Source: Sphingomonas sabuli
GTDB lineage: Bacteria; Pseudomonadota; Alphaproteobacteria; Sphingomonadales; Sphingomonadaceae
DNA: 64,000 nt
Direction: 5' to 3'
Assembly: GCF_014352855.1 (NCBI RefSeq)
Contig: NZ_CP060697.1
Span: 1,488,001-1,552,000 of the forward strand
Of the stretch, positions 25,157-43,267 are shown one piece after another. Within the stretch, counting starts at the first letter, position 1; each line of letters starts with the position of its first letter. The position numbers and the translations under genes were made by a program. The notes beneath the pieces are model-generated. The model was not told where the DNA came from. It worked only from the letters and a program-made list of their open reading frames with translations, and ran no database searches.

Positions 25157-25837
25157 TCAGATTGCCGGACGGCGAAGGGCGCGGACCTTTGGCGGCGCCA
25201 CCCCGCTCGCTTCGACCAATTCGGGCACCGGTTCGTGCATGTGCATCAGGGAACTCAGCAGCGCTTCGTCCTCGCTCGAGCAGACGCCGAGCACCAGCGC
25301 TTCGTCACAGCCCTCGGCGGCGAGATAGGCGTGGCCCATTTTCGAATCGATGTAGATCGCTTCGCCGGTCTGCAGCGTAACCGGATCGTAGAATTCGGTG
25401 TGGACGATGATCGAGCCTTCGAGGACGTGAATATATTCCTCGCCATTGTGCGACACGAGATCGCCGAATTCGGACAGCGTCTTGGCGCGGATCCGGGTGA
25501 GGATCGGCACCATCCGCTTGTGGCGCAATTCGGTGCACAGATAATAATAATCGTAATTCGGCGTGTTGACCCGGATCGCATCCTCCAGGCGGCCGATGCT
25601 GCGCCGCGCCGTGACCGTCTCCGGCGGCTCGGTTTCCGCGAACAATTCCGAAATCGGGATTTCCAGATTTTCGCTTAGCTGGACGAGCTTGTCGTAAGTC
25701 AGCGTTAGTCTGTCGTTCTCGACCTTCGAGAGCGTCGAAAGCGGAATGCCGCTGTGCTCGCTCATGTCGCGCAGCGTCCAATTGCGATGCCGACGAAGCT
25801 CCTTGAGAATCTGCCCCAGTGTCGGACGCGTGCTCAA
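25157..25837 (-). CDS. XRE-family regulator with C-terminal cupin domain
   Basis: A 226-residue regulator. The helix-turn-helix (TLGQILKELRRHRNWTLRDM, then HSGIPLSTLSKVEN) spans about residues 5-60, and a cupin_2 sensor follows (EEYIHVLEGSIIVHTEFYDP, then GEAIYIDSKMGHAYL). Start: in-frame codons are open well upstream, but a TTG at 25837 with GGAG eight bases before it puts the HTH at the N-terminus. An upstream ATG would overlap the divergent operon. Regulators of this class control amino-acid and polyamine catabolism. Transcribed away from the D-amino-acid/peptide operon, it is the obvious candidate for its control. Confidence 0.85.
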   Translation of the reverse strand: MSTRPTLGQILKELRRHRNWTLRDMSEHSGIPLSTLSKVENDRLTLTYDKLVQLSENLEIPISELFAETEPPETVTARRSIGRLEDAIRVNTPNYDYYYLCTELRHKRMVPILTRIRAKTLSEFGDLVSHNGEEYIHVLEGSIIVHTEFYDPVTLQTGEAIYIDSKMGHAYLAAEGCDEALVLGVCSSEDEALLSSLMHMHEPVPELVEASGVAPPKVRALRRPAI

Positions 25838-25859
25838 CCTTCTGACTCCGACAGCAAGT

Positions 25860-25887
25860 TTGACAATTTTCTGATCAGGCTCATAAT
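25860..25887 (+). promoter_or_regulatory. Candidate sigma-70 promoter of the D-amino-acid/peptide operon with internal palindrome
   Basis: TTGACA at 25860-25865 and CATAAT at 25882-25887 are separated by 16 bases, giving a strong -35/-10 pair for the + strand. The palindrome CTGATCAG lies in the spacer at 25871-25878, a plausible site for the XRE-cupin protein. Transcription would start near 25894, with GGGAGGGG shortly before the ATG at 25962. Prediction only. Confidence 0.5.
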
Positions 25888-25961
25888 GGCCTAAATAGAT
25901 ATTCTGCGCATGATAAGGCGATTTGCGCGATTCGGGCAAATTCTCTGGGAGGGGAAAGCAG

Positions 25962-27962
25962 ATGCGGAAACTGGTCGCGTTCGTGACGGCATGTGTCGGG
26001 GCTATATGTTTGTCGAGCGCGGTTGCGCAATCGCCGGACCAGCGCGGCCCGCTTACTCCGGTCGCGGGCGATGGGCCCGGGACCAATTTGCCGACGACCC
26101 CGCGCCAAGGCCCGGAATCGCTGAGCAAGGAGGATGTCGACGCCTGGCTCGACGGCTACATGCGCTATGCGCTTGGCAAGAATGACATCGCCGGCGCCGT
26201 GGTCACCGTCGTCAAGGATGGCCAGCTTTTGACCAAGCGCGGTTACGGCTACGCGGACGTCGCCAGCCGCAAGCCGGTCAATCCCGATCTGACCCTGTTC
26301 CGACCGGGTTCGGTGTCGAAACTGATTACCTGGACCGCGGTCATGCAGCAGGTCGAACAGGGCAAGATCAACCTCGACGCCGACATCAACCAATACCTCG
26401 ATTTCAAGATCAAACCGTACCGGGGCCAGCCGGTCACGATGCGGCAGCTGATGCAGCATACGGCCGGGTTCGAAGAGCAGATCAAGGACCTGATCGGGTC
26501 GGACCGCAAAGGCATTCCGGAATATGACGAGTTGCTCAAGCGCTGGGTGCCGAACCGCATCTTCGCGCCCGGCACCACGCCCGCATATTCCAACTACGGG
26601 ACGTCGCTTGCCGGCTACATCGTCCAGCGCACGTCGGGCGAGAATTTCTACGACTATACCGACCGCCACATCTTCACCCCGCTGAAGATGAACCATTCGA
26701 CCATGCGCCAGCCGCTGCCGGCAGCGTTCCAGCCACTGATGGCGACGGGCTACAAGACGGCGTCCGGCGACCCGCTGAAGTTCGAAATCGTCGGCCCCTC
26801 GCCGGCGGGGTCACTGTCCTCGACAGGGACGGACATGGCGCGCTTCATGATCGCCCATCTCAACAACGGCGAGCTTGACGGCCAGCGCATCCTCAAGCCC
26901 GAAACGGCCAGGTACATGCACACCGCCGTGAAGCTGTACGTGCCGCCGCTGGACGGGATGGCGCTCGGGTTTTTCCAGACCAACGTCAACGGCCGGCGCG
27001 TCATCGCCCACCTTGGCGATACCGAAGGCTTCCATACCTCCTTGCACCTGTTCCTGGACGGCAACACCGGGCTTTACGCCTCGTTCAACAGCGGCGGCGA
27101 AGAAGGTGGGGTCAACGGAGTGCGGGTGGCGCTCTTCGAGCAATTCGCCGACCGCTACTTCCCGGGCAAGCCGGACATGAACCGCGTGCCGAAGGAGCAA
27201 GCGAAGAAGCATGCGGAGATGATGGCGGGCAACTGGGTCGCCTCGCGGCGCGCCGATTCCAGCTTCCTCAACCTCACGGCGCTGATCGGGCAAACCAAGG
27301 TGTCGGTCGACAAGGACGGCAATCTTGTCGCGTCGGGCCTGTCGCTGTCCGCGGCCAAACCCAAGTGGGTCGAGACCGAACCCTTTGTCTGGCACGACCT
27401 CAACAGCAACCAGCGGCTTGCCGCCGTAGTCAAGGATGGCAAGGTCCAGCGCTTCAGCGGATCGATCATGTCGGCCTTCACCGTGTTCGAACGGCCGGCG
27501 TGGTACAAGAACAGCGCGCTGGTCATGCCGTTGCTGCAGATCGCGATCGGCATCCTGCTGATCACCGCGATCCTGTGGCCGGTGCGCCATGCGGTTCGCC
27601 GTTACCACAAGGCCGAGTTTGCGCTGACCGGGCGAGAGTTGCTTGGCTACCGCCTGTCGCGCAGTGCGGCGGTCGCGATCCTGCTGGTGCTGGTCGGCTG
27701 GGCAGCCCTCATCACCGTGATGTTCGGCGAGCTCGAAAACACGGGCGGCAATCTCGATACGCTCGTCATCATCGTCCAGCTGCTGACGTTCGTCGCCTTC
27801 CTCGGCGGGCTCGCGATCTTCTGCTGGTATGCCTGGCAGGTGTGGACCGGCAAGCGGCGCTGGACGGCCAAGGTGTGGAGCCTTGCCCTGGTCTTCGCCG
27901 GCATCGTGGTCGTGTGGGTCGGCTTTGCCTTCCACATGCTCAGCATCGGTACCAACTACTGA
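25962..27962 (+). CDS. Serine hydrolase (class C beta-lactamase/D-aminopeptidase fold) with C-terminal membrane region
   Basis: A 666-residue exported protein. The ATG at 25962 is preferred because GGAGGGG lies upstream and the product begins with a signal peptide ending SSAVAQ. The beta-lactamase fold carries S117-V-S-K120 (nucleophile Ser, general base Lys), Y209-S-N211 and a third H-x-G-like site in AHLGDTEGFH. The last 150 residues contain several hydrophobic helices, so it is probably anchored with the catalytic domain in the periplasm. Members include D-aminopeptidases, DD-peptidases and esterases. As first gene of the D-glutamate/peptide operon it probably cleaves D-residue-containing peptides or amides. 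The next gene starts within its stop (ATGA). Confidence 0.85.
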   Translation: MRKLVAFVTACVGAICLSSAVAQSPDQRGPLTPVAGDGPGTNLPTTPRQGPESLSKEDVDAWLDGYMRYALGKNDIAGAVVTVVKDGQLLTKRGYGYADVASRKPVNPDLTLFRPGSVSKLITWTAVMQQVEQGKINLDADINQYLDFKIKPYRGQPVTMRQLMQHTAGFEEQIKDLIGSDRKGIPEYDELLKRWVPNRIFAPGTTPAYSNYGTSLAGYIVQRTSGENFYDYTDRHIFTPLKMNHSTMRQPLPAAFQPLMATGYKTASGDPLKFEIVGPSPAGSLSSTGTDMARFMIAHLNNGELDGQRILKPETARYMHTAVKLYVPPLDGMALGFFQTNVNGRRVIAHLGDTEGFHTSLHLFLDGNTGLYASFNSGGEEGGVNGVRVALFEQFADRYFPGKPDMNRVPKEQAKKHAEMMAGNWVASRRADSSFLNLTALIGQTKVSVDKDGNLVASGLSLSAAKPKWVETEPFVWHDLNSNQRLAAVVKDGKVQRFSGSIMSAFTVFERPAWYKNSALVMPLLQIAIGILLITAILWPVRHAVRRYHKAEFALTGRELLGYRLSRSAAVAILLVLVGWAALITVMFGELENTGGNLDTLVIIVQLLTFVAFLGGLAIFCWYAWQVWTGKRRWTAKVWSLALVFAGIVVVWVGFAFHMLSIGTNY

Positions 27963-28975
27963 TGAGGCAAAGGCTCGCCTTTCGGGTCGAGACCTTCCGG
28001 CTCGCCGCGCCCTTCCGCATCTCGGGCTATGTGTTCGAGGGCAGCGATGTCGTCGTCGTCGAACTGACCGACGGCGACCATCGCGGACGCGGCGAAGCAG
28101 GCGGCGTCTATTATCTGGGCGACGATGCCGCCAACATCGTCGCCACGCTGGACGCCAACCGCGCCGCGATCGAAGGCTGCGAAAGCCGCTCGGACCTGCA
28201 GCAGCTGCTTCCTCCGGGCGGCGCGCGCAACGCGGTCGATTGCGCGATGTGGGAGCTAGAAGCCAGTCGCCTGGGCCAGCCCGCGCACGCGCTGGCCGGC
28301 ATCGCCGAACCCAGGCCTTTGGTCACCACCTTCACGCTCGGCGCCGACGATCCGGCGAAGATGGCCGAAGGCGCACGGGGCTATGCGCAGGCCCGGGCGA
28401 TCAAGCTGAAGCTGACAGGCGACCTGGACCTCGACCTTGCCCGGGTGGCTGCGGTGCGCGAGGCGCGGCCCGATGCCTGGCTGGGCGTCGATGCCAACCA
28501 GGGTTTTGCCATCGGCGAACTGGAGGCGCTGGCCCGCGGCCTTGCCGACCTCGGGGTCGAATTGCTCGAACAGCCGCTGGCGCGCGGTCGCGAAGCCGAC
28601 CTCGAAGGCTTCGACAGCCCGATCCCCGTCGCCGCCGACGAAAGCGCGCTGTCGCTGGCCGACATGGCCTCGCTCCCCGGCCGCTTCGACGTGGTCAACA
28701 TCAAGCTCGACAAGTGCGGCGGGTTGACCGAAGCGCTCGACATCGCACGCGAGGCCCGCCGGCTTGGGCTTGGCGTGATGGTCGGCAACATGGTCGGCAC
28801 GAGCCTTGCGATGGCCCCCGCCTTCATCCTTGGCCAATATTGCGATTACGTCGATCTCGACGGGCCGACCTTCCTGACCGAGGACCGAAGCCCCGCCGCC
28901 CGTTATGACGGCGGCAAGATCTGGTGTCCCGACGAGGTTTGGGGCTCCCCGCAGGCCGTGGCTGCCGGCGCATGA
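27962..28975 (+). CDS. dgcA: N-acetyl-D-glutamate racemase DgcA-like / dipeptide epimerase (enolase superfamily)
   Basis: A 337-residue enolase-superfamily enzyme of the dipeptide-epimerase group. The acid-base and metal residues are all visible: K148-L-K150, metal ligands D177 (VDANQ), E203 (EQPL) and D226 (ADES), and the opposite lysine K248 in VNIKLDKCGG. DgcA homologues racemize N-acetyl-D-Glu to N-acetyl-L-Glu after acetylation by DgcN, and a DgcN-type gene lies 4.7 kb downstream in the same operon. A plain L-Ala-D/L-Glu epimerase is the main alternative, and both would fit D-Glu use. The start overlaps the preceding stop. Confidence 0.85.
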   Translation: MRQRLAFRVETFRLAAPFRISGYVFEGSDVVVVELTDGDHRGRGEAGGVYYLGDDAANIVATLDANRAAIEGCESRSDLQQLLPPGGARNAVDCAMWELEASRLGQPAHALAGIAEPRPLVTTFTLGADDPAKMAEGARGYAQARAIKLKLTGDLDLDLARVAAVREARPDAWLGVDANQGFAIGELEALARGLADLGVELLEQPLARGREADLEGFDSPIPVAADESALSLADMASLPGRFDVVNIKLDKCGGLTEALDIAREARRLGLGVMVGNMVGTSLAMAPAFILGQYCDYVDLDGPTFLTEDRSPAARYDGGKIWCPDEVWGSPQAVAAGA

Positions 28976-30300
28976 CGACCCCGTCGAACTGGTTCGGTCA
29001 GCCGCGTGGCCTGACGATCCTGTTCCTGACGAACATGTGGGAGCAATTCTCCTACTACGGCATGCGCGCGCTGCTGGTTTACTACATGACCACGACCCTG
29101 CTGTTCGATCAGGAGAAGTCGTCCAGCATCTACGGTTTCTACACCGCCTTCGCCTATTTCACGCCGATCATCGGCGGGACCATCGCCGACCGCTGGCTGG
29201 GCAAGAAACGAGCCGTGATCATCGGCGCGACGATCATGGCCGCGGGCCATTTCATGATGGCGTTCGAACCGGCTTTCTATTTCGCCCTGGCCACCATCGC
29301 GCTTGGCAATGGCCTGTTCCTGCCGACGCTGCCGGCGCAGATCAACGACCTCTATCATTCCGGCGATCCGCGCCGCCCGTGGGCCTACAACGTCTATTAT
29401 GTGGGCGTGAACGTCGGCGCCTTCCTGGCGCCGCTGATCTGCGGTTTCCTCGGCGAAACCTACGGCTGGCACTGGGGCTTCGGCGCGGCCGGTGTTGGCA
29501 TGCTGACCGGTCTCGTCATCTACCTGTGGGGCCAGCGCTACCTGCCGCCCGAACGCAGGGCCGATGCGCACCCCGCGACGCCAGCGCCAATCACGCACCG
29601 CGGGCGCAACACCTTCCTGTTGCTGCTGGGCATCGGCCTGGCGGTGACCGTGTTCCGCGGCGCCTATGAGCAGATCGGCAACACCTTCGCGTTGTGGATG
29701 CGCGACGATGTCGACCGCGTCATCGGCGGCATCGAGATCGGTGCGGCGATGTTCTTCTCGCTCAATCCGCTGCTGGTGATGATCATGACGCCTTTTCTGC
29801 TCGCGCGCTGGAAGCGGCAGGCGGAGCGCGGCACCGAATTGTCGGTGATGCACAAGATGGCGACCGGCGCCCTGATCGTCGCAGCCTCCTACCTCGTCGT
29901 GGCCGCCGCCGAAGCGGTCAGCGGCGCGGGCAGCGCGCACTGGCTGTGGCTGCTGTCCTTCTTCCTCATCTTCACGCTTGGCGAACTGTACATCCTGCCC
30001 AACGGGCTCGGCATCTTCGCCCGGCTCGCCCCCCCTAAGCTTGGGGCCAGCACGGTCGCGGCCTGGTATCTCGCGATCTTCGCGGGCAGCCTTGCCGCCG
30101 GGCAGGTCGGGCGGCTGTGGAGCCACGTCGACCACACCAGCTTCTTCCTGCTGCTGGCCGGCATCGCCACCGCCGCGGCAATGCTTCTGTTCCTGCTCGA
30201 CCGGCCGACCAAGGCGGTGCTTGCCGCCGCCGCGGACGCGGGACCGGACGAAGACCTGACCGATGTCGGCATCGGCCTTGCGAGGCAGCGCCATGGCTAG
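28972..30300 (+). CDS. POT-family peptide transporter (MFS) with variant ExxER motif
   Basis: A 442-residue inner-membrane protein of the proton-dependent oligopeptide transporter (PTR2) family with about 12-14 helices. TM1 reads TNMWEQFSYYGMRALL: the usual E-x-x-E-R-F motif is N-x-x-E-Q-F, so the first Glu and the Arg are replaced. FYTAFAYFTPIIGGTIADRW and the NVYYVGVNVGAFLAPLICG helix are typical of the family. It would bring di- or tripeptides from the periplasm to the cytosolic enzymes. It starts in an ATGA overlap with dgcA. Proton coupling may differ from classical members. Confidence 0.9.
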   Translation: MTTPSNWFGQPRGLTILFLTNMWEQFSYYGMRALLVYYMTTTLLFDQEKSSSIYGFYTAFAYFTPIIGGTIADRWLGKKRAVIIGATIMAAGHFMMAFEPAFYFALATIALGNGLFLPTLPAQINDLYHSGDPRRPWAYNVYYVGVNVGAFLAPLICGFLGETYGWHWGFGAAGVGMLTGLVIYLWGQRYLPPERRADAHPATPAPITHRGRNTFLLLLGIGLAVTVFRGAYEQIGNTFALWMRDDVDRVIGGIEIGAAMFFSLNPLLVMIMTPFLLARWKRQAERGTELSVMHKMATGALIVAASYLVVAAAEAVSGAGSAHWLWLLSFFLIFTLGELYILPNGLGIFARLAPPKLGASTVAAWYLAIFAGSLAAGQVGRLWSHVDHTSFFLLLAGIATAAAMLLFLLDRPTKAVLAAAADAGPDEDLTDVGIGLARQRHG

Positions 30301-30378
30301 CCCGCGCAGTTCAACAATTCGCACCGCAATTTTCGGGCGCCTTGGCGGCGTCCGGGCAATGAGAGAAGGGGAGTGGCA

Positions 30379-32682
30379 ATGAAAAATCTGGGATTCACCG
30401 CACGAACGGCGTTGTTCGCATCGGCCGGAATGGCAGCCATGCTGATGGCCGGCACGGCCCACGCGCAAATCCAGGAGCAGCAGCCGCCGCCGCAACAGGA
30501 CGATAGCGCAACCGATGCCGACCCGGCGGAAATCATCGTCACCGCGCAGAAGCGCGAGGAGTCCATCCTTGCCATTCCGCAATCGGTCAGCGTCGTCGGC
30601 GGCGACACGCTTGAGCGGCTCAACGCTAGCAGCTTTCAGGACTTCGCCGCGCTTGTCCCGGGCCTCAGCCTGACGGAAACCAATCCCGGCAACACCCGCA
30701 TCGTCCTGCGCGGCGTCAATACCGGCGGCGTCAGCCAGACGGTCGGTGTGTATGTCGACGAGACGCCGTTCGGATCGAGCAGCGGCCTGGTCAACGGCGC
30801 CATCCTCGCCGGCGACTTCGACACGTTCGATGTCGCCCGGCTGGAAGTCCTGCGCGGGCCGCAGGGTACGCTCTATGGCGCAAGCTCGCTTGGCGGCGTG
30901 ATCAAATACGTCACCAACGCGCCGCAGCTCGGCCAGAATGGTGGACGGGCGCGCGTGTCGGTCGAAAGCGTCAAGGGCGGCGAACTCGGTTTCAACGTGG
31001 CCGGCGTCGGCAATGCCGCGCTGGGCGACACGGCTGCCCTTCGCGTTTCCGGCTTCTATCGCAAGGAAGCTGGCTTCATCGACGCCGAGGCCGGCTGGTC
31101 GAACCTGCTCGGCTCCCCGTCGATCGGTGGCGACGACATCAACGACGCCAAGGTTTACGGCGGCCGTGCGCAATTGCTGTTCGAGCCGACCGACCTGTTC
31201 AAGGTCCGGCTGTCCGCCGTCACCCAGCAGATCCATTCGCACGCGTCGTCCGCGATCGAAGTCGACGACGACACGCTCGACCCGGTCGACGACCGGTACA
31301 TCCAGACGGTCTTCATTCCGGAGTTCAACAAGACGCGCTATACCGTGCTCAACGGCACGGCCGAATATGACTTCGGCTTTGCGTCATTGCTGTCCTCGAC
31401 CAGCTACGCGCGGCTCAAGCAGACCTTCCTGACCGACCTGACGACGACCTACGGCTTTGCCGTATCCTTCATCTTCGGTGGACTTGTCCGGCCGTTGGGC
31501 GCGCAGCAGGACCAGTTGACGGGTTTCAAGAAATTCACGCAGGAATTCCGACTGACGTCGCCTTCCGACGATCGCTTCGAATGGCTGCTCGGCGCTTACT
31601 ACACCAACGAGCGCGGCAAGATCGTCCAGGACATCAACGCCTTCGACGTCGACACCGACACACTTGCCACGGACATTCCAAACCTCGCCAACGCGACGCT
31701 GCCGAGCAAATATCGCGAAGTCGCCGGCTTTGCGAACGCGACCTTCCATTTCAACGAGACCTTTGACCTGACTGGCGGCGTCCGCCTCAGCCGCAACAAG
31801 CAGGAAGCGAGCCAGGTCCTGGACGGGCCGCTGGTCGGTGGGCTGACGACGTTCGACGATCTCAACTCGTCCGAATCCGTGTTCACCTATGCCCTTGCAC
31901 CGCGCTTCGAGCTGAGCCCGAACACCGCGCTCTATGCGCGCGTCGCGACGGGTTACCGGCCCGGTGGTCCGAACGTGCTGGCGCCCGGCGCACCGCCGGA
32001 ATTCGCAACTTATGACGCTGACCGGCTGACCAATTACGAAATCGGGCTGAAGACCGACATCGGGCGCCGGCTTTCGTTCGATATCGCCGGCTACATCCTT
32101 AAGTGGAAGGACATCCAGCTGTTCGTCGTCGAGGACGGTGTCGGGTTCAACGCCAACGGCGGCAAGGCCACGTCCTACGGCCTGGAATCGACCATGACCT
32201 ACCGGCCGTTCCGGGGCCTCCAGCTGCTTGGCAACGTCGCTTACGTTCACGGGGAGCTGGACGAGAACGCCGGCGCCACGGGCGGGCGCAAGGGCGATCC
32301 CCTGCCGTGGGTGCCGCGGCTGAGCGCCAGTCTCAATGCCGATTACGAATGGCCGATCGCTGTCGATACCCGCGCCTTCGTCGGCGGCGGCGTGCGCTAT
32401 GTCGGCAAGCAATACGCCAACTTCGACGCCGATTACCGCACCGCCAACGGCCGCCAGCGCCCGATCAATCCGTACGGGGTGCTGGACCTTCGCGGCGGCG
32501 TTGAATTCCGCAACTTCAACGTCGAGGCCTACATCCAGAACCTGACAGACTCGCACGGACTGACATCGGCGGACCTGCCGACCGACGCGTTTCTCGGCAC
32601 GCCCGTGCTGCCCAATGGCGCGGTCAGCGCCGCGGTCATTCGGCCGCGGACGATCGGGGTCACCCTCGGCATGGAGTTCTGA
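30379..32682 (+). CDS. TonB-dependent receptor of the D-amino-acid/peptide operon
   Basis: A 767-residue outer-membrane receptor with a signal peptide ending TAHAQ, a short acidic/proline spacer, the TonB box EIIVTAQKRE, a plug (IPQSVSVV, VDETPFGSSS, LEVLRGPQGTLYGASSLGGV) and a 22-strand-type barrel ending in GVTLGMEF. ATG at 30379 is preferred over GTG at 30373 because GGGGAG then lies five bases upstream. It follows the transporter by 78 bases and overlaps the next start. Its place between peptide transporter and D-Glu genes suggests it imports peptides or N-acyl amino acids too large for porins. The substrate is inferred. Confidence 0.9.
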   Translation: MKNLGFTARTALFASAGMAAMLMAGTAHAQIQEQQPPPQQDDSATDADPAEIIVTAQKREESILAIPQSVSVVGGDTLERLNASSFQDFAALVPGLSLTETNPGNTRIVLRGVNTGGVSQTVGVYVDETPFGSSSGLVNGAILAGDFDTFDVARLEVLRGPQGTLYGASSLGGVIKYVTNAPQLGQNGGRARVSVESVKGGELGFNVAGVGNAALGDTAALRVSGFYRKEAGFIDAEAGWSNLLGSPSIGGDDINDAKVYGGRAQLLFEPTDLFKVRLSAVTQQIHSHASSAIEVDDDTLDPVDDRYIQTVFIPEFNKTRYTVLNGTAEYDFGFASLLSSTSYARLKQTFLTDLTTTYGFAVSFIFGGLVRPLGAQQDQLTGFKKFTQEFRLTSPSDDRFEWLLGAYYTNERGKIVQDINAFDVDTDTLATDIPNLANATLPSKYREVAGFANATFHFNETFDLTGGVRLSRNKQEASQVLDGPLVGGLTTFDDLNSSESVFTYALAPRFELSPNTALYARVATGYRPGGPNVLAPGAPPEFATYDADRLTNYEIGLKTDIGRRLSFDIAGYILKWKDIQLFVVEDGVGFNANGGKATSYGLESTMTYRPFRGLQLLGNVAYVHGELDENAGATGGRKGDPLPWVPRLSASLNADYEWPIAVDTRAFVGGGVRYVGKQYANFDADYRTANGRQRPINPYGVLDLRGGVEFRNFNVEAYIQNLTDSHGLTSADLPTDAFLGTPVLPNGAVSAAVIRPRTIGVTLGMEF

Positions 32683-33746
32683 TGGCCAATGTGACTGCCG
32701 TCACACGTGAACCGTCCAGCGAACAGGAGCTGCCGCACCCGTACCTCCTGTTCCTGGGCGACACGGTGCATCCGGGGTTCGCCAAGACGGCGTTCGGCCT
32801 GAAGCAATGGGCGCCGGAGCTGTGCCTTGGCCAGTTTGCGCTGCCCAGCGCGCAGATCGACCTTGGCCTGCCCAACCTTCGGCCCGCCGAAGCGCGCGCG
32901 AAGGGTGCCCGCGCCCTGGTCATCGGGGTCGCCAATTCGGGCGGCTTCATCGCGGCGTCGTGGATCCCCGCACTGGTCGAGGCGCTGCAGGACGGGCTTG
33001 ATATCATCAGCGGCATGCACGCGCGGCTCGGCGATATCGCGGAGCTTCGCTACACGGCGGAACGGCACGGTCGGCAACTGATCGACATCCGCACCCCGCC
33101 GCCGCGGATTCCGATCGCCACCGGCCTCAAGCGCAGCGGCAAGCGGCTGCTGACCGTCGGCACCGACTGCGCCTTGGGCAAGAAATATGCCGCATTGTCG
33201 ATCGCGCGCGCCTTTGCCGAGCGCGGCGTTGACGCCGATTTCCGCGCCACCGGCCAGACCGGCATCATGATCGCCGGCAGCGGCATTCCGATGGACGCCG
33301 TCGTTTCCGATTTCGCTGCCGGGGCGGCGGAACTGCTCAGCCCGGACGCGGCGCCAGACCATTGGGACGTGGTCGAGGGCCAGGGTTCGATTCTTCATCC
33401 GGCCTACGCCGGCGTTTCGCTGGCCCTACTCCATGGGAGCCAGCCGGACGTGTTCGTCGTCTGTCACGACCCGGGCCGGACGCACCTGCTCGGCGACGAA
33501 CAGTTCGCCCTGCCCCCGGTCGAGGAGATTATCGATCTCACCGTCCGCCTCGGGTCGCGCACCAACCCGGCCATCCGTTGCGGCGGCATTGCTCTGAACA
33601 CGTCTAAGCTGGAAGCGCAGGAAGCCGAGGCCCTGTGCGCAGCGGAATCGCGACGGCTTGGCTTGCCCGTGGCCGATCCCATCCGGGGCGGTCCCGCCTT
33701 CGACGCGCTGATCGAGAATTGCCTCGCCGCGCCCGCCAGTAGCTGA
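32682..33746 (+). CDS. dgcN: DUF1611 / D-glutamate N-acetyltransferase DgcN-like
   Basis: A 354-residue cytosolic protein of the DUF1611 family. A P-loop-like segment reads TVGTDCALGKKYAALS in the middle, with RATGQTGIMIAGSGIPMDAV and GQGSILHPAYAGVSLALLHG further on, all hallmarks of the family. Characterised DgcN acetylates D-glutamate, giving N-acetyl-D-Glu for DgcA. Both partners occur here in one operon, which supports the call. The start overlaps the receptor stop (TGATG). It is one of the most diagnostic genes for the D-glutamate role of the cluster. Confidence 0.85.
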   Translation: MANVTAVTREPSSEQELPHPYLLFLGDTVHPGFAKTAFGLKQWAPELCLGQFALPSAQIDLGLPNLRPAEARAKGARALVIGVANSGGFIAASWIPALVEALQDGLDIISGMHARLGDIAELRYTAERHGRQLIDIRTPPPRIPIATGLKRSGKRLLTVGTDCALGKKYAALSIARAFAERGVDADFRATGQTGIMIAGSGIPMDAVVSDFAAGAAELLSPDAAPDHWDVVEGQGSILHPAYAGVSLALLHGSQPDVFVVCHDPGRTHLLGDEQFALPPVEEIIDLTVRLGSRTNPAIRCGGIALNTSKLEAQEAEALCAAESRRLGLPVADPIRGGPAFDALIENCLAAPASS

Positions 33747-33756
33747 GGATAGAAAT

Positions 33757-35364
33757 ATGCTGACAGCCGGCTTCAAGTTGCTCGCCCGCAGCCGCGCCCT
33801 CCTGCTCGTCACGGCCGCTGTCGCCACGCCCGCCTGGGCTGCTCCGCCCGATGGTTTCGCCCAGCGCGTCGAACAGGTCCGCACCAAGATCGGCGTGCCC
33901 GGCGTCGCCATCACGATCGTCGAGAACGGGCAGCCGACATTGGCCCAGGGTTGGGGCACGCAAATGGTCGGCAGTAACCGGCCGGTCGGCCCGCAAACCA
34001 TCTTCCAGACGGGATCGACCGGCAAGGCGTTCACCACCGCCGCGCTCGCCATCCTTGTCGACCAGGGCAAGCTGAAATGGGACAGCGCGGTGATCGACTA
34101 CATGCCGTGGTTCCGGATGTACGACCCGTGGGTCACGCGCGAGATCACGGTGCGCGACCTGCTGGTCCACCGCAGCGGGCTCGGCCTTGGCGCGGGCGAC
34201 CTGTTGTTCCTGCCGAACAGCGACCTGTCGCGGCGCGAGACCGTGGAACGGCTCGGGCGGATCAAGCCCGCGACCAGTTTCCGCAGCGGCTATGCTTATG
34301 ACAACGTCCTCTACATGGTCGCCGGCCAGCTGATCGAGGAAGTCAGCGGCCGCACCTGGGAGCAATTCGTCCGCGAGCAGATTTTCGCGCCCCTGGGCAT
34401 GAACGAATCCACCGTGTCCGACCGGGAATATCTGGCGACCGCGGACCGCGCGCACGCGCATGTCCGGTCGGACGGGCCAATCGTCGGGCTGGGCGCGCAA
34501 AAGCCGCTCGACGGCGATGCGCTGATCGCCGCCAATGCCGCGCCCGCCGGTGGCCTGTCGATCAGCGCCGACGACATGAGCCGCTGGCTGCAGGTGCAGC
34601 TCGCGCGCGGCAAGATTCCGGGCAGCGACCGGCGCTTGTGGTCGGAGGAACAGGCCGCGCAAATGTGGGACCCGGTGGTGATCCAGCCGATCGCGCCGGC
34701 CATCCCCGGGTTCGAAGCCGTGCAGCCCAATTTCGAAACCTATGCGCTGGGTTGGGACGTGCGCGACTATCGCGGGGCCAAGCTGATCTGGCACGGCGGC
34801 GCGGTCTTCGGATCGCTTGCCGCGGTCGCCCTGCTACCCGACCGCAACGTCGGCATCTACATCGCCGCCAACGCCAACGAAGGGCAGCTGGTGCGCGGCC
34901 TGCTGTACGAATTGCTCGATCATTATCTCGGCGCCCCCGCGGCGGGCTGGCCCGAAAAGTATGACGTGATCCGCACCAAGCGCATCGCCGATGCCGCCGC
35001 GCAGGTACAGCAGGAAGAGAAGGCTCCGGTGAAGGCTGGGCCGTCCCTGCCGCTCGACCGATATGCCGGCGACTTTACCGACCCGTGGTATGGCACGATC
35101 AACGTCCGCCGTGCAGGCCAAGGCCTGCACATCGAATTCCCGCATTCGACGGGGATGGACGGGCCGCTCACCCACTATCAATATGACACGTTCCGGACGA
35201 ACCCGACGCTGAAATGGGTGGAGCCGGCCTATGTCACCTTCTCGCTCGGCGCCAACGGCACGGTCGAGCGAGTGACGATGAAACCGGTTTCGCCGATCGC
35301 CGACTTCAGCTTCGATTTCCAAGACCTGTTGTTCACGCCGGCCGCCAAGGGGGAAGCCAAGTGA
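33757..35364 (+). CDS. Serine hydrolase (class C beta-lactamase-like) with DUF3471-like C-terminal domain
   Basis: A 535-residue exported protein (signal peptide ending TPAWAAP). The catalytic motif is S87-T-G-K90, followed by Y-D-N in RSGYAYDNVLYMVAG and the HGG triad in LIWHGGAVFGS. A beta-rich DUF3471-like C-terminal domain starts near residue 420 (LDRYAGDFTDPWYG). Related enzymes include D-aminopeptidases and D-amino-acid amidases. It is the second such hydrolase of the operon, 10 bases after dgcN, and its stop overlaps the next start (GTGA). The two hydrolases may have different peptide specificities. Confidence 0.85.
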   Translation: MLTAGFKLLARSRALLLVTAAVATPAWAAPPDGFAQRVEQVRTKIGVPGVAITIVENGQPTLAQGWGTQMVGSNRPVGPQTIFQTGSTGKAFTTAALAILVDQGKLKWDSAVIDYMPWFRMYDPWVTREITVRDLLVHRSGLGLGAGDLLFLPNSDLSRRETVERLGRIKPATSFRSGYAYDNVLYMVAGQLIEEVSGRTWEQFVREQIFAPLGMNESTVSDREYLATADRAHAHVRSDGPIVGLGAQKPLDGDALIAANAAPAGGLSISADDMSRWLQVQLARGKIPGSDRRLWSEEQAAQMWDPVVIQPIAPAIPGFEAVQPNFETYALGWDVRDYRGAKLIWHGGAVFGSLAAVALLPDRNVGIYIAANANEGQLVRGLLYELLDHYLGAPAAGWPEKYDVIRTKRIADAAAQVQQEEKAPVKAGPSLPLDRYAGDFTDPWYGTINVRRAGQGLHIEFPHSTGMDGPLTHYQYDTFRTNPTLKWVEPAYVTFSLGANGTVERVTMKPVSPIADFSFDFQDLLFTPAAKGEAK

Positions 35365-37106: not shown

Positions 37107-37135
37107 GGGCCGCGCCTTGAGCGGCCGGAGCGCGC

Positions 37136-40100
37136 ATGCTTGAAGGCGGCGTGGCTGGCGGCTGGACATTCGCGATCGATCGCGGCGGCACTTTCACCGA
37201 CGTGATCGCCACCTCGCCCGGCGGCGAGACCGTGGTCGAGAAACTGCTGTCGGAAAATCCGGGCCAGTATGACGACGCTGCGCTGGAGGCGATCCGGCGC
37301 GTGCTGGCGCGATCCGGCGGCGGGACGGTCGAGGCCGTGCGCATGGGCACGACGGTCGCCACCAATGCCTTGCTCGAACGCAAGGGCGACCGCGTGGCGC
37401 TGGCCATCACGCGCGGCTTCGGCGACGCGCTACGCATCGGCTACCAGGCGCGACCCGAAATCTTCGCGCGCCACATCGTCCTGCCCGACCAGCCGTACGA
37501 GATGGCGGTCGAGATCGACGAACGCATCGGTGCCGATGGCGCGATCGTCCGCGCGCTCGACGAAGACCAGGCGCGGGCAGCCCTGCAGTCGGTACGCGAG
37601 GTTGGTATCGACAGCCTTGCCATCGTCCTCGTCCATGGCTGGCGCTTCACGCAGCACGAGGCGCGTCTGGCGCACATCGCTGCCGAACTCGGCTTCGCGC
37701 AAATCTCCGTCAGTCACGAGGTCGCGCCGCTGATCAAGCTGATCGGCCGCGGCGATACGACGGTGGTCGACGCCTATCTGTCGCCGGTGCTGCGCCGCTA
37801 CGTCGACCGCGTCGCCGCCGGATTGCCCAAGGCCGCGCGCCTGCAATTCATGCAGTCCAACGGCGGCCTTGCCGACGCCGGCGCCTTTCGCGGCAAGGAC
37901 GCAATCCTGTCCGGTCCGGCAGGTGGTGTCGTCGGCATGGTCGCGGCCAGTGCGCCGCATTTTGGCGATGGCGAGCCCCACCGACTGATCGGCTTCGACA
38001 TGGGCGGCACCTCGACCGACGTGTCCCACTATGCCGGCCGGTTCGAACTGTCCGACGAAAGCGTCGTCGCCGGCGTGCGCATCCGTGCGCCGATGATGCA
38101 CATCCACACCGTCGCGGCGGGCGGCGGAAGCATCTGCAGCTTCGACGGCATGCGCTTTCGCGTCGGCCCGCAATCCGCCGGCGCCCACCCCGGCCCGGCC
38201 TGTTACCGCAACGGCGGGCCGCTGACCGTGACCGATTGCAACCTGTTCCTGAAGCGCATCGATGCGGGCGCCTTTCCCGCCGTGTTCGGCCCGGACGGCA
38301 GGCAGCCGCTCGATCCCGAGGCGTCGCGGGCTCGGTTGCAGGAAGTCGCCGACGCGCTTGGCGGCGCCAAGACGCTCGAAGACATTGCCGACGGTTTCCT
38401 CGCCATTGCGGTCGACAACATGGCCAAGGCGATCCGCAAAATAAGCATCGCGCGCGGCCACGATGTCACCCGCTACACGCTGGCCTGCTTCGGCGGCGCC
38501 GGCGGCCAGCTTGCCTGCCGCGTCGCGGATGCGCTCGGCATCGAACGCATCCTCATTCACCCGCTCGCCGGCGTGCTGTCCGCTTATGGCATCGGCCTGG
38601 CCGACGTGAAGGTAATCCGCGAAGCCAGCTTCCTGCAGCCGCTCGGCAGCGACGTCGCCGAACCCCTCGCTGCGCTGGAAGCGGCGGCTTTAGGCGCGCT
38701 CATCGACCAGGGCGTTGGCCGCGACGCCGTCACGCTCATCCGCCGCGCACGCCTGCGCTATGCCGGGAGCGACACTACGCTCGACGTCATGCTGGCCGAC
38801 GCGGCGGCGATGCGCGCCGACTTCGAAACGCTGCACCGTGCGCGCTTCGGCTATCTGGACAGCAGTGCCGGGATCGTCATCGACGCCCTGGTCGTGGAAG
38901 GCGTCGGCCATCGCGGCACGAAGGCAACGGACACCGCTTCCGGGGTTGAGGGCGAGCCGGTCCCCGGCCCCGCCCTGATCGCCGAGGCGACGTCCACCAC
39001 TGTCGTCGAACCGGGCTGGACCGCGCGGCGCGCCGGTGACGGCACGCTGCTACTCGCCCGCACCGTGCCGGCCGAGCGCGCCTATGCCGCCGGGACCGAT
39101 GCCGACCCGGTGATGCTGGAGATTTTCAACAACCTGTTCATGGCCATCGCCGAGGAAATGGGCGTGGCGCTCCAGGCGACGGCGACCAGCGTCAACATCA
39201 AGGAGCGGCTCGATTTCTCCTGCGCGCTGTTCGACGCGAGCGGCGCGCTGATCGCCAATGCGCCGCACATTCCCGTGCACCTCGGGTCGATGGGCGAAAG
39301 CATCCGCCACATCATCGACACGCGCGGGCACGGAAAGGATGGGCGCGGCATCCGGAGCGGCGACGCCTACGTGCTCAACGACCCCTATCGCGGTGGCACG
39401 CATCTGCCCGACATCACGGTCATCATGCCGGTCTTCTATGGCGACGGCGACAGCGCGCCGTCCGCTTTCGTCGCCGCGCGCGGGCACCATGCCGATATCG
39501 GCGGGATCGCGCCGGGATCGATGCCGCCCGACAGCCGGTCGATCAGCGACGAAGGCGTCCTGATCGACAATGTGCTGATGGTCGACGCGGGCGAATTCCG
39601 CGAAGCCGCGATGCGCGCGCTATTGGCGACCGGCGAGCATCCGGCGCGCAACATCGACCGCAACATTTCCGATCTGCGCGCCCAGCTTGCGGCGTGCGTG
39701 CGCGGCGCGGAAGGATTGGTCGAAGCGGTCCGCGACTATGGCCGCGACGTGGTCGATGCCTACATGCGCCACGTCCTCGCCAATGCCGAGGAATCGGTGC
39801 GCCGGCTGCTCGGCCGGCTCGACGACGGCGATTTCGATTATGCGATGGACAATGGTGCGAATGTCGGCGTTGCCATTCGCATCGACAAGGCCAGCCGTTC
39901 GGCCGTGTTCGATTTCACCGGCACGTCGGCGCAACTGCCCGACAATTTCAACGCGCCCTTTTCGATCATCCGCGCCGCTTCGCTTTACGTACTGCGGACC
40001 CTGATCGACGATCCCATTCCGATGAACGACGGCTGCCTGCGCCCGGTCACCCTGATCGTGCCCGACGGCTCGATGCTCAGCCCCGGCTTTCCCGCCGCAG

Positions 40101-40648
40101 TCGTCGCCGGCAATGTCGAAACCAGCCAGGTCGTTACCGACACCCTGTTCGCCGCGACCGGGCGGCTGGCGCCGAGCCAGGGGACGATGAACAATTTCAC
40201 GTTCGGCAACGAGGCTCATCAATATTATGAGACCATCGCCGGCGGATCGGGGGCAGGCATCGACCATGACGGGACCAGCGCCGTGCAGACGCACATGACC
40301 AACAGCCGCCTGACCGACCCGGAAATCCTCGAGACCCGCCACCCGGTGCGGCTGGAGCGCTTCGCCATCCGCCGCGGGTCCGGCGGCGTTGGCCGCCACC
40401 GCGGCGGCGACGGCGTTATCCGCGATCTCGCTTTCCTCGAACCGATGCGCGCCAACATCCTAGCCAATCGCCGGGCAGTCGCGCCGCGCGGCATCGCCGG
40501 CGGTGCGGACGCCAGCCCCGGGCGCAACTGGGTCGAGCGCATCGACGGCACCATCGAGACACTGAGCGCCACGGCCTCGGCCGAGATGCAGCCCGGCGAC
40601 CGCTTCGTCATCGAAACGCCCGGCGGCGGCGGCTTCGGGCGCGCATGA
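37136..40648 (+). CDS. Fused hydantoinase A/B, 5-oxoprolinase family
   Basis: A 1170-residue protein joining HyuA-like (N-terminal hydantoinase/oxoprolinase, actin-like ATPase; [10 protein letters not shown] at 15-24 and [13 protein letters not shown] in the middle) and HyuB-like (about residue 650 on; [47 protein letters not shown]) halves, the arrangement of ATP-dependent 5-oxoprolinase. Such enzymes open 5-oxoproline to glutamate; N-methylhydantoinase and acetophenone carboxylase relatives are alternatives. GGAG is five bases before the ATG. Its place beside DUF969/979 and D-Glu genes favours pyroglutamate as substrate. Confidence 0.88.
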
Positions 40649-41358
40649 TGACCTATCTCCCACTGCTCGGCATCCTGCTCGTCGTGGTCGGCTTCGCGCT
40701 TCGGCTGAACCCGATGCTGGTGGTGACCGCGTCGGCGATCGTTACCGGCCTGCTTGGCGGGATGGACCTCATCGAAGTCATCTCAATCTTCGGCAAGGCG
40801 TTCAACGACAATCGCATCATCGCCATCGTGTGGATCGTGTTGCCGGTCATCGGCCTGCTGGAGCGCTTCGGCCTGCAGCAGCGCGCGGCGACGCTAATCC
40901 GGGGCTTCCGCAAGGCCAGCGTCGGCAAGCTGCTCGTGCTCTACCTGCTGTACCGCCAGGTCACCGCGGCCATCGGCCTGCATTCGACCGCCGGGCATCC
41001 GCAAACGGTCCGCCCGCTGGTGGCGCCGATGGCGCTGGCCGCTGCCGAAAAGCAGCATGGCGAGCTGGAGGAGGAGACGTCGGAAAAGGTAAAGGCCTAT
41101 GCCGCCGCGACAGACAATGTCGGCCTCTTCTTCGGCGAGGACATTTTCTTCGCCATCGGCTCGATCGTGCTGATCCAGCAGACCCTAGTTACCTACGGCT
41201 ACAATCTCGCCCCGCTGCAACTGGCCGTATGGGCGATCCCCACGGCCATCCTCGCCTTCCTTATCCACGGCTTCCGGCTGCTGCTGCTCGACCGCAAGCT
41301 TGCTCGCACGCATCGGCCGTTACCGCCGGTCGCGGAAGCCGCGGAGGTCAGCGAATGA
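40645..41358 (+). CDS. DUF969 family membrane protein (putative permease subunit)
   Basis: A 237-residue protein with about five hydrophobic segments. The family block [20 protein letters not shown] is present, with [20 protein letters not shown] at the N-terminus. DUF969 proteins are always paired with DUF979 proteins, as here, and are found beside pyroglutamate-related enzymes, so a permease for 5-oxoproline or a related organic acid is suspected. The start overlaps the oxoprolinase stop and its stop overlaps the DUF979 start. Confidence 0.85.
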
Positions 41359-42308
41359 TCACGCTGACCTGGCTCTACGGTCTTGCCGGCGCGATGTTCG
41401 CCGCATTCGCTGTCCTCAGCGCCTCCGACCGAAGCAACGGCAAGCGGTTTGGCAACGCCGCTTTCTGGGGGCTGATGGCGCTCAGCCTGCTGGCGGGCGA
41501 TTATCTTGGCGGATTCGGCAACGGTCTGCTGGTGCTCGGCCTGGCCGGACTTGCGGGTTTCGGGCTGATCGGCCGCAGCAATCCGCCCACGACCAGCGAT
41601 GCAGAGCGCGAAGGCTGGTCGACGCGGCTGGGCAACCGGCTGTTCCTGCCCGCGCTGATCATCCCCGCTACCGCCCTTTTCGGCACCCTGCTCTACAATT
41701 ACACGCCGGTCGGCGATCTGGGCTGGATTGAGGACAAGCGCGAAACCTATGTCCTGCTTGGCCTGGGCGTGCTGATCGCCATCGCCGTCATCTTCGTCTG
41801 GCTGAAACCGCCGGCGGTGGCGCCGTTGCAGGAAGGTCGGCGGCTGATCGACGCGATCGGTTGGGCGGCCGTGCTGCCGCAGATGCTCGCCGCGCTTGGC
41901 GTGCTGTTCGCCGCCGCCGGGGTCGGCACGATCATCGGCGACGTCACCGCGTCGGTCATTCCGGACGGCAGCGTCTTCCTGACCGTGCTTGTCTTCGCCG
42001 TCGGCATGGCGCTGTTCACGATGATCATGGGCAACGCCTTTGCTGCTTTCCCGGTCATGGCCGCGGCAATCGGCGTGCCCTTGCTGATCCAGGGCTATGG
42101 CGGCGATCCGGCGGTGATCGGCGCAATCGGCATGCTGGCCGGCTTTTGCGGTACGTTGATGACCCCGATGGCAGCCAACTTCAACATCGTCCCCGCCGCG
42201 TTGCTGGAGCTCAAGGATCAATATGGGGTGATCAAGGCGCAGGTGCTGACCGCCGTCCCCCTCCTCATCGGCAATATCCTGCTGATCTATTTCCTGGCGT
42301 TCCGATGA
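41355..42308 (+). CDS. DUF979 family membrane protein (putative permease subunit)
   Basis: A 317-residue protein with about nine hydrophobic segments. Recognisable blocks are AAVLPQMLAALGVLFAAAGV, MIMGNAFAAFPVMAAAIG and GFCGTLMTPMAANFNIVPAA. It partners the DUF969 protein encoded just upstream (ATGA overlap). Together they look like a two-gene inner-membrane carrier with 5-oxoprolinase as the cytosolic step. The transported molecule is not proven for the family. The stop overlaps the DUF2891 start. Confidence 0.85.
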   Translation: MITLTWLYGLAGAMFAAFAVLSASDRSNGKRFGNAAFWGLMALSLLAGDYLGGFGNGLLVLGLAGLAGFGLIGRSNPPTTSDAEREGWSTRLGNRLFLPALIIPATALFGTLLYNYTPVGDLGWIEDKRETYVLLGLGVLIAIAVIFVWLKPPAVAPLQEGRRLIDAIGWAAVLPQMLAALGVLFAAAGVGTIIGDVTASVIPDGSVFLTVLVFAVGMALFTMIMGNAFAAFPVMAAAIGVPLLIQGYGGDPAVIGAIGMLAGFCGTLMTPMAANFNIVPAALLELKDQYGVIKAQVLTAVPLLIGNILLIYFLAFR

Positions 42309-43267
42309 GCGGGCTGACGCAGGCAATGGCGGCGCAGATGGCGGGGATCGCGCTCGGCCATGTCGCCAGGCCCTATCCGTACAAGATGGACCACGTGCTG
42401 CTCGATGACGGCGACGCGCGCCCGCCGCGCGCGCTGCACCCGATCTTCTTCGGCAGCTTCGACTGGCACAGTTGCGTCCACGGCTGGTGGACCCTGCTGA
42501 CCCTGCGCCGGCTGTATCCCGACATGGCGGAGGCACGCGCCATTGCCGAACTCGCCGATGCCAGCTTCACCGCGCAAAAGGTGGCGGTCGAACGCGCTTA
42601 CCTCGACCGGCCGATGTCAGCGGGCTTCGAGCGGCCGTACGGCTGGGCTTGGCTGCTCTACCTGCACCTTGAAGCCACGCGCCACGGCGACCGCGACTGG
42701 GGCGAGCGCCTGCGGCCGTTGGCGGATGCGTTCGCCGACCGCTTCCGGCGCTACCTGGCGATCCTTACCTATCCGATCCGCGCGGGGACGCATTTCAACA
42801 CCGCCTTCGCGCTGATCCTGTCGCTACAATGGGCGCGGGCGTTCGATGCCGATCTCGCAGGGCTGATCAGGGAAAAGGCCCAGGGCTGGTTCAAGGGCGA
42901 TGAAGGCGCGCAGGCGTGGGAGCCGAGCGGTGACGATTTCCTGTCGCCGACGCTGACCGAGGCGGTGCTTATGCAGCGGGTGCTGGGCGATGGCTTCGAT
43001 CCATGGTTCGCGGGCTTCCTGCCGAACCGCGACCAGCGCCGCCCGGAAACCCTCTTCACCCCGGCAACGGTCAGCGACCGCAGCGACGGCAAGATCGCCC
43101 ACCTCGATGGATTGAACCTCAGTCGCGGCTGGTGCTGGCGGCTGCTGGGCGAGCCGCAGGTAGCGCAGGCGCATCTCGACGCGGCGATGCCGCACCTGTC
43201 CGGCGATTACATGGGCGAACATTGGCTGCAGAGCTTCGCCCTGCTTGCCCTGCTCAATGACATTTGA
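42305..43267 (+). CDS. DUF2891 domain protein
   Basis: A 320-residue soluble protein of the DUF2891 family. The characteristic FGSFDWHSCVHGWWTLLTLRR stretch is near residue 55, FERPYGWAWLLYLHLEA near 105 and HLDGLNLSRGWCWR near 265. Many Trp and His residues and a helical repeat pattern suggest an alpha/alpha-barrel enzyme, but no activity is known to me. It occurs as last gene of this operon and overlaps the convergent paaD stop by 14 bases. Co-occurrence with DUF969/979 and oxoprolinase suggests a role in the same pathway. Confidence 0.85.
   Translation: MSGLTQAMAAQMAGIALGHVARPYPYKMDHVLLDDGDARPPRALHPIFFGSFDWHSCVHGWWTLLTLRRLYPDMAEARAIAELADASFTAQKVAVERAYLDRPMSAGFERPYGWAWLLYLHLEATRHGDRDWGERLRPLADAFADRFRRYLAILTYPIRAGTHFNTAFALILSLQWARAFDADLAGLIREKAQGWFKGDEGAQAWEPSGDDFLSPTLTEAVLMQRVLGDGFDPWFAGFLPNRDQRRPETLFTPATVSDRSDGKIAHLDGLNLSRGWCWRLLGEPQVAQAHLDAAMPHLSGDYMGEHWLQSFALLALLNDI

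What the first reader, a model, noticed from the sequence alone, without database searches (positions are those of the whole stretch)
25157..43267. Self-contained D-glutamate/D-peptide utilization operon with its own TonB receptor, peptide transporter and regulator
Eleven + strand genes, most joined by ATGA, GTGA or TGATG overlaps, combine every step from outer membrane to cytosol: TonB receptor, two beta-lactamase-fold serine hydrolases, a D-aminoacylase-like lipoprotein, a POT peptide carrier, DgcN and DgcA (D-Glu to N-acetyl-D-Glu to N-acetyl-L-Glu), a fused 5-oxoprolinase, a DUF969/979 carrier and DUF2891. An XRE-cupin gene is divergent. DgcN/DgcA and oxoprolinase functions come from characterised homologues. 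That all act on one substrate class, such as gamma-D-Glu peptides of peptidoglycan or N-acyl-D-Glu, is inference. I know of no described system with this exact set, but could not search.
Basis: partly seen in the sequence, partly recalled or inferred. Interest (0 to 1): 0.85.

Follow-up and report, generated by a model that had tools for sequence, protein, structure and literature searches.

The report
D-peptide locus joined to oxoproline operon
A sphingomonad-type bacterium carries a recurrent gene set that looks built for taking up and breaking down peptides with D-amino acids, placed directly in front of a separate 5-oxoproline operon, so what looked like one eleven-gene system is better read as two units joined in this genome.

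Summary
The eleven + strand genes and divergent regulator are real and tightly packed, but they are two units. Unit A (25157-37106: regulator, serine hydrolase, DgcA-like epimerase, POT carrier, TonB receptor, DgcN-like enzyme, second hydrolase, amidohydrolase lipoprotein) recurs in the genus, the family and other proteobacteria, often with M19 dipeptidases. It has a recurrent promoter/operator with one match in this genome. Unit B (37136-43267: fused oxoprolinase, DUF969, DUF979, DUF2891) is a separate recurrent operon. A and B were found adjacent only here among 71 genus, 249 family-sample and 289 class-sample genomes, fragmented assemblies permitting. The D-glutamate label is weakened: both Dgc homologues score below NCBIfam cut-offs, and the epimerase lies in a clade without the 'ISRG' arginine. 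Best reading: a utilisation locus for D-residue peptides, side chain unknown, here probably read through into a 5-oxoproline operon. No function was tested.

The parts
25157..25837 (-). XRE-cupin regulator of unit A (start TTG 25837 preferred)
   Evidence: HTH_19, HTH_3 and Cupin_2 above cut-off; divergent from SH1 in many relatives
25859..25900 (+). recurrent promoter/operator of unit A, TTTGACAATTTTC..ATCAGG and following bases
   Evidence: 31 of 56 regulator-SH1 segments, shuffled control mean 0.45, max 2; one match in the own genome with up to 3 mismatches; sigma-70-like hexamers 25860-25887
25962..27962 (+). SH1: beta-lactamase-fold serine hydrolase; export signal and C-terminal membrane segments read by eye
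   Evidence: PF00144 200.6 bits; translation
27962..28975 (+). DgcA-like epimerase/racemase of the enolase superfamily, clade without the ISRG arginine
   Evidence: NCBIfam DgcA 364.1 of 400; tree; model pLDDT 95.5, nearest 4gfi and 1jpd
28972..30300 (+). POT-family peptide:H+ symporter
   Evidence: TIGR00924 271.9 bits, over cut-off; PF00854
30373..32682 (+). TonB-dependent outer-membrane receptor
   Evidence: PF00593, PF07715
32682..33746 (+). DgcN-like (DUF1611) enzyme, below the DgcN cut-off
   Evidence: NF041892 445.9 of 480; model pLDDT 92.1 matches 7xrj, N-acetyltransferase DgcN-25328
33757..35364 (+). SH2: beta-lactamase-fold serine hydrolase with DUF3471
   Evidence: PF00144, PF11954
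35361..37106 (+). amidohydrolase, D-aminoacylase-like, without the HxH motif; lipobox LAGC read by eye
   Evidence: D-aminoacylase structures are the best PDB matches; ligand columns
37136..40648 (+). unit B: fused Hydantoinase A+B protein, probable 5-oxoprolinase
   Evidence: PF05378, PF01968, PF02538; operon recurs in relatives
40645..41358 (+). unit B: DUF969, part of a putative 5-oxoproline carrier
   Evidence: PF06149 299.4 bits
41355..42308 (+). unit B: DUF979, part of the same putative carrier
   Evidence: PF06166 397.7 bits
42305..43267 (+). unit B: DUF2891
   Evidence: PF11199 382.2 bits
43254..46060 (-). PaaD-like, thiolase and HPPD-like genes: a right flank of unit B shared with four relatives; not part of the operon
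   Evidence: same genes after DUF2891 in G003, G046, G034 and G069

Best explanation
Unit A is a utilisation locus for peptides that carry D-residues. The TonB receptor takes the peptide across the outer membrane; exported serine hydrolases and the amidohydrolase lipoprotein trim it in the periplasm; the POT carrier imports a di- or tripeptide; in the cytosol the DgcN-like enzyme acylates the freed D-amino acid (or the epimerase takes the dipeptide directly) and the DgcA-like epimerase inverts the alpha-carbon, giving an L-product. The XRE-cupin protein controls the promoter in front of SH1. The side chain handled is probably not, or not only, glutamate. Unit B is a 5-oxoproline uptake and hydrolysis operon. 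In this genome unit A lies 29 bp upstream of unit B, so B is probably read from the unit A promoter. Shown: the genes, their order, the recurrence of A and of B as separate units, the recurrent promoter, and the clade and residue differences. Inferred: every enzymatic step, transport, co-transcription and the substrate.
For: Regulator-SH1-DgcA-POT-receptor-DgcN in that order in 9 of 16 genus loci fetched, and in whole or large part in many family and named loci. Census of 145 loci, of which 47 without a usable DgcA row were left out: of 72 loci whose epimerase lacks the arginine, regulator in 54, SH1 57, receptor 44, M19 44, SH2 42, POT 26; of 26 with it, regulator 0, SH1 0, receptor 1, M19 2, POT 1. 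Variants of unit A add M19 dipeptidases. Epimerase clade of 67 rows, support 100/100, none with the Arg. DgcN column 44 is Arg in 17 of 20 rows with an arginine-type partner and Ala in 27 of 32 others. In 10 of 10 proteins that I chose, NCBIfam cut-offs follow the split. Unit B complete and in order in 10 of 10 regions chosen for it and 9 of 14. A C. jejuni cj0552-4 (DUF969-DUF979-DUF2891) mutant lost use of 5-oxoproline as nitrogen source in a preliminary experiment (PMC12795558, passages). One operator match in the own genome.
Against: No substrate, expression or growth data. The census used identity to the window's own proteins (SH at least 40%, receptor 33%, regulator 40%), which favours unit A; weaker serine hydrolases occur in 11 and weaker receptors in 3 of the 26 arginine-type loci. 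The cut-off split has exceptions: by hand, DgcN is over the cut-off in 10 of 13 arginine-type loci (below in L042, L048, L067) and in 1 of 21 others (L065). The arginine does not divide the tree into two clean clades: 6 Gly rows lie outside the 67-row clade, one Arg row lies on the Gly side, and the deepest split is weak (48/95). Catalytic residues and DxD of DgcA are kept, so a reaction on Glu is not excluded. 95 of 147 DgcN rows were not classed. The positions of DgcA residue 22 and DgcN residue 44 relative to a ligand were not checked. An internal promoter for unit B cannot be excluded. Two 51%-identical oxoprolinases (L102, L108) stand without the three DUF genes. Units A and B co-occur in the genus and lie 22 kb apart in G009, 38 kb in G020 and probably about 10 kb in G048, so a functional or regional link may exist.
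Confidence: 0.55

Rival explanations
1. One reading: one D-glutamate system, in which gamma-D-Glu peptides of peptidoglycan are cut to D-Glu, which passes through DgcN/DgcA to N-acetyl-L-Glu, while 5-oxoproline is salvaged by the oxoprolinase part.
For: DgcN and DgcA are the best NCBIfam matches; KxK and DxD kept; units A and B co-occur in the genus, 13 of 13 against 29 of 58, and DgcN with DUF979 in the family sample, 35 of 67 against 57 of 182.
Against: Both enzymes below cut-off; epimerase clade without the ISRG arginine; neighbours differ from those of arginine-type loci. Adjacent to unit B in no other genome seen; in the class sample DgcN is in 72 and DUF979 in 8 of 289 genomes, only the window genome holding both.
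Confidence: 0.2
2. A dipeptide route without acylation: POT imports L-X-D-Y dipeptides, the DgcA-like enzyme epimerises the dipeptide itself, and the DgcN-like protein does another CoA- or ATP-dependent step.
For: DxD kept in 51 of 51 unit-A rows (that it binds the dipeptide amino group is recalled); nearest structures include dipeptide epimerases with bound dipeptides; POT carrier and M19 dipeptidases in many of these loci.
Against: DxD is also kept in 36 of 36 rows beside DgcN, so it does not separate the reactions; the DgcN model matches a structure named N-acetyltransferase.
Confidence: 0.15
3. The locus takes apart D-residue natural products, as the mlr cluster does for microcystin, rather than cell-wall peptides.
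For: Up to seven DgcN matches in one genome would fit many substrates; the mlr route uses a serine protease, MlrB, whose active site is said to be that of the beta-lactamase family, and a putative transporter, MlrD (PMC6914704, passages).
Against: No mlr protein was compared with SH1, SH2 or POT here; no substrate evidence.
Confidence: 0.15

Closest known systems
DgcN-DgcA D-glutamate pathway (Yu et al. 2023, ISME J 17:537; content recalled, title seen as a reference, text not held)
   Same: Homologous pair of DUF1611 enzyme and enolase-family racemase; DgcN model matches structure 7xrj.
   Different: Scores below cut-off, separate epimerase clade, and regulator, SH1, receptor and POT genes that the 26 arginine-type loci almost wholly lack at the thresholds used.
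L-Ala-D/L-Glu epimerase 1jpd (E. coli YcjG, recalled) and 4gfi (Agrobacterium)
   Same: Fold and catalytic residues.
   Different: IARG / ISRG loop replaced by ISGY in the window.
5-oxoproline genes DUF969-DUF979-DUF2891 (Campylobacter jejuni cj0552-4, PMC12795558)
   Same: Same three gene families in order at 40645-43267.
   Different: Preceded here by a fused oxoprolinase and by unit A.
Polysaccharide utilisation loci (recalled)
   Same: Works like one: receptor, exported hydrolases, carrier, cytosolic enzymes and regulator together.
   Different: Peptide-type, not glycan, enzymes among the genes identified.

Membership tests
DgcN-DgcA D-Glu pathway | DgcN over NCBIfam cut-off 480 | tested here: not met
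   445.9 bits; not a perfect marker, see L042, L048, L067, L065
DgcN-DgcA D-Glu pathway | DgcA over NCBIfam cut-off 400 | tested here: not met
   364.1 bits
DgcN-DgcA D-Glu pathway | ISRG-type loop as in arginine-type rows (my criterion, not a published definition) | tested here: not met
   Gly at residue 22
DgcN-DgcA D-Glu pathway | D-Glu acetylation and N-acetyl-D-Glu racemisation | not testable with these tools
   needs enzymology
5-oxoproline operon | DUF969, DUF979, DUF2891 together | tested here: met
5-oxoproline operon | oxoprolinase-family enzyme adjacent | tested here: met
   PF05378, PF01968, PF02538
5-oxoproline operon | hydrolysis of 5-oxoproline | not testable with these tools
   best PDB sequence match is an N-methylhydantoinase, next a chain named 5-oxoprolinase
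D-aminoacylase | HxH metal motif (ligand role recalled) | tested here: not met
   LSW in its place; absent in all 24 rows at 52% identity or more
D-aminoacylase | Cys metal ligand (recalled) | tested here: not met
   GEGW in its place; but only one row of the whole alignment (L065) shows Cys there, so this does not mark unit A
Dipeptide epimerase | KxK, metal ligands, DxD | tested here: met
   invariant in 51 unit-A rows

The most novel reading that the evidence does not exclude
Unit A is a widespread, undescribed class of D-peptide utilisation loci, analogous to polysaccharide utilisation loci, in which DgcN-like and DgcA-like enzymes have diversified away from glutamate so that different copies in one genome (up to seven DgcN matches) serve different D-amino acids, each with its own receptor, carrier, hydrolases and local XRE-cupin switch; in this species one such locus has captured a 5-oxoproline operon.
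Probability: 0.45. Interest if true: 0.7.

Novelty: new variant of a known kind. Interest (0 to 1): 0.5.

Why it matters
D-amino acids from cell walls and peptides are a large, slowly used pool of organic nitrogen. A common locus type that handles D-residue peptides outside the known D-Glu route would explain part of that turnover, would caution against automatic DgcN/DgcA naming in these bacteria, and gives defined genes to test.

Tried and rejected
Rejected: conserved adjacency of dgcN with oxoprolinase/DUF979. Rejected as a discriminator: the DxD motif, kept in both epimerase groups, and the D-aminoacylase Cys, missing in nearly all rows. Rfam and tRNA scans of the window gave nothing. GC content does not set unit A clearly apart (0.61-0.68 in 2-kb steps, neighbours 0.63-0.70). 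Terminator-like sites are not more frequent than in shuffles (11 against 12.4). Paper searches for a described locus: 'DUF1611' 2 papers, listing and abstract starts seen, unrelated; 'dipeptide epimerase' with 'TonB-dependent' 1 paper, passages seen, unrelated; a five-term search none. These cover only the held open library, so 'undescribed' is limited to that.
Full report
OBSERVATION. Family assignments agree at domain level. The own genome is 2.51 Mb in one contig and has one DgcN match. The genus is probably that of Sphingomonas caseinilyticus: the contig of L143 has the length of G010:C4 (181574) and G010 is in the genus; this is an inference.

TWO UNITS. In the genus 16 of 71 genomes have a DgcN match: 13 at 64-100% identity, the window's type, and three at 46-49%. 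I fetched 16 loci, two of them from G010. Regulator, SH1, DgcA, POT, receptor and DgcN occur in that order in nine (L019, L020, L021, L023, L025, L027, L028, L029, L030), some with genes split into pieces and some with a further gene between. L022, L024 and L031 end at contig ends, L026 has DgcN with two serine hydrolases only, L032-L034 are the 46-49% type. No oxoprolinase was detected in any of the 16; L024 has part of DUF2891 about 10 kb away on the other strand. An oxoprolinase of 50% identity or more is in 42 of 71 genomes. Ten regions chosen for it all show oxoprolinase-DUF969-DUF979-DUF2891 in order. Of 14 more, nine show the four genes (in L096 the last is cut), three are cut by a region or contig end (L095, L105, L106), and two 51%-identical oxoprolinases stand without the DUF genes (L102, L108). 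In four of these 19 complete loci (G003, G046, G034, G069) the operon is followed by PaaD-like, thiolase and HPPD-like genes as in the window; in the other 15 those genes were not detected, some of them near a region end. G003 and G046 hold the two oxoprolinases most like the window's (82 and 81%). So the right half of the finding sits at a site shared with close relatives, and unit A is what differs in front of it.

HOW RARE IS THE JOIN. By coordinates, no other genome of the 71 in the genus or of the 249 in the family sample, where 35 have both genes, has them adjacent on one contig; fragmented assemblies cannot be excluded. The nearest are 22 kb (G009), 38 kb (G020), about 25-36 kb in four genomes of one other genus (G154, G218, G268, G308), and G048 at about 10 kb by inference. 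In the class sample DgcN is in 72 and DUF979 in 8 of 289 genomes, both only in the window genome (E up to 1e-60). None of the 79 loci shows an oxoprolinase; L147 has a 39% DUF2891. G184 has a 51% oxoprolinase next to the regulator, convergent with it (L069, L102). Against mere chance neighbours: genus co-occurrence 13 of 13 against 29 of 58 (p = 0.0004), 10 of 10 against 20 of 44 at 90% completeness or more (p = 0.001), 9 of 9 against 17 of 28 when also 2.4 Mb or more (p = 0.025); family sample 35 of 67 against 57 of 182 (p = 0.002). These tests ignore relatedness.

UNIT A ELSEWHERE. The set recurs in whole or large part in Sphingopyxis, Sphingobium, Sphingosinicella, Novosphingobium, Altererythrobacter, Luteimonas, Pseudoxanthomonas, a Xanthomonas strain, Dyella, Rudaea, Povalibacter and Duganella (my removal of overlapping frames dropped some genes). 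The loci were found with a profile of this DgcN type, capped at the best 80, and the family loci were picked by me, so the counts describe these loci, not all genomes. Variants of unit A add M19 dipeptidases, an S9 peptidase (L074), a beta-lactamase-like enzyme (L023), or a membrane protein without Pfam match (L070). An M55 D-aminopeptidase (L042) lies in an arginine-type locus. Some genomes have seven DgcN matches (G154, G268, G308).

THE DGC QUESTION. Of 100 epimerase rows, 26 have Arg at window residue 22 (as in 4gfi and 1jpd), 70 Gly, 4 another residue. The window lies in a 67-row clade with support 100/100 (64 Gly, 3 other). Six Gly rows fall outside it, one Arg row (L183) falls on the Gly side, and the deepest split is weak (48/95). 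In a census of 145 loci, 47 had no usable epimerase row and were set aside; the neighbours of the other 72 and 26 differ sharply, with the caution that genes were scored by identity to the window's proteins and that at least four loci appear twice under G and record names (L029/L143, L073/L137, L074/L142, L082/L111). NCBIfam cut-offs follow the split in ten proteins that I chose; by hand, DgcN is over the cut-off in 10 of 13 arginine-type loci and 1 of 21 others. In the class sample 69 of 72 DgcN genomes are over it, the window genome not. DgcN column 44 follows the split (17 of 20 Arg, 27 of 32 Ala), with 95 of 147 rows not classed. That the loop arginine contacts the Glu side chain in L-Ala-D/L-Glu epimerases is recalled; the papers were not held. 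The amidohydrolase of unit A belongs to a group of 24 rows without the HxH motif, while those beside arginine-type epimerases keep it; some other relatives lack it too, and the D-aminoacylase Cys is missing in nearly all rows.

CONTROL REGION. A promoter/operator-like block is in 31 of 56 regulator-SH1 segments; 20 single-base shuffles gave a mean of 0.45 and a maximum of 2. The block was found in these same segments, some are the same region under two names, and two were too short to hold it (lengths 0 and 7). It has one match in the own genome.

STRUCTURES. The DgcA model (pLDDT 95.5) is closest to 4gfi and 1jpd; the DgcN model (92.1) to 7xrj, named N-acetyltransferase DgcN-25328, then to two DUF1611 structures, and much more weakly to P-loop enzymes such as a pseudomurein peptide ligase and dethiobiotin synthetase.

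UNIT B. In C. jejuni a cj0552-4 (DUF969, DUF979, DUF2891) mutant lost use of 5-oxoproline as nitrogen source in an experiment its authors call preliminary (PMC12795558, passages). A table in PMC10040529 lists hydantoinase B/oxoprolinase, DUF969, DUF979 and DUF2891 clusters among those co-occurring with halotolerance in Pontixanthobacter and Allopontixanthobacter (one passage).

VERDICT. Real, recurrent and worth testing, but best read as two systems side by side, with the D-glutamate label not earned by the sequences.

Noticed in passing
window 17260-22641 and 22652-24703: A 1793-aa kinase-like protein with a long array of near-identical repeats (read from the translation, not domain-scanned), followed by a hybrid kinase; homologues of the pair lie beside unit A in G069 (L020) and beside unit B in G002 (L093).
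   Followed up: partly
G154, G268, G308: Seven DgcN-family matches per genome; the seven G268 loci have differing neighbourhoods.
   Followed up: partly
L070:10474-11571: Membrane protein (GGGYATGRE motif) with relatives in 45 of 72 loci of the non-arginine type; no Pfam match; not seen in the window operon.
   Followed up: no
DgcN model mf2c996957ca3: Beyond DUF1611 structures the listed matches are P-loop and ligase-type folds; no GNAT protein is among the 50 listed, although DgcN is described as a GNAT relative (recalled). The Walker-A-like residues G160-D162, G166 and K167 are invariant.
   Followed up: partly
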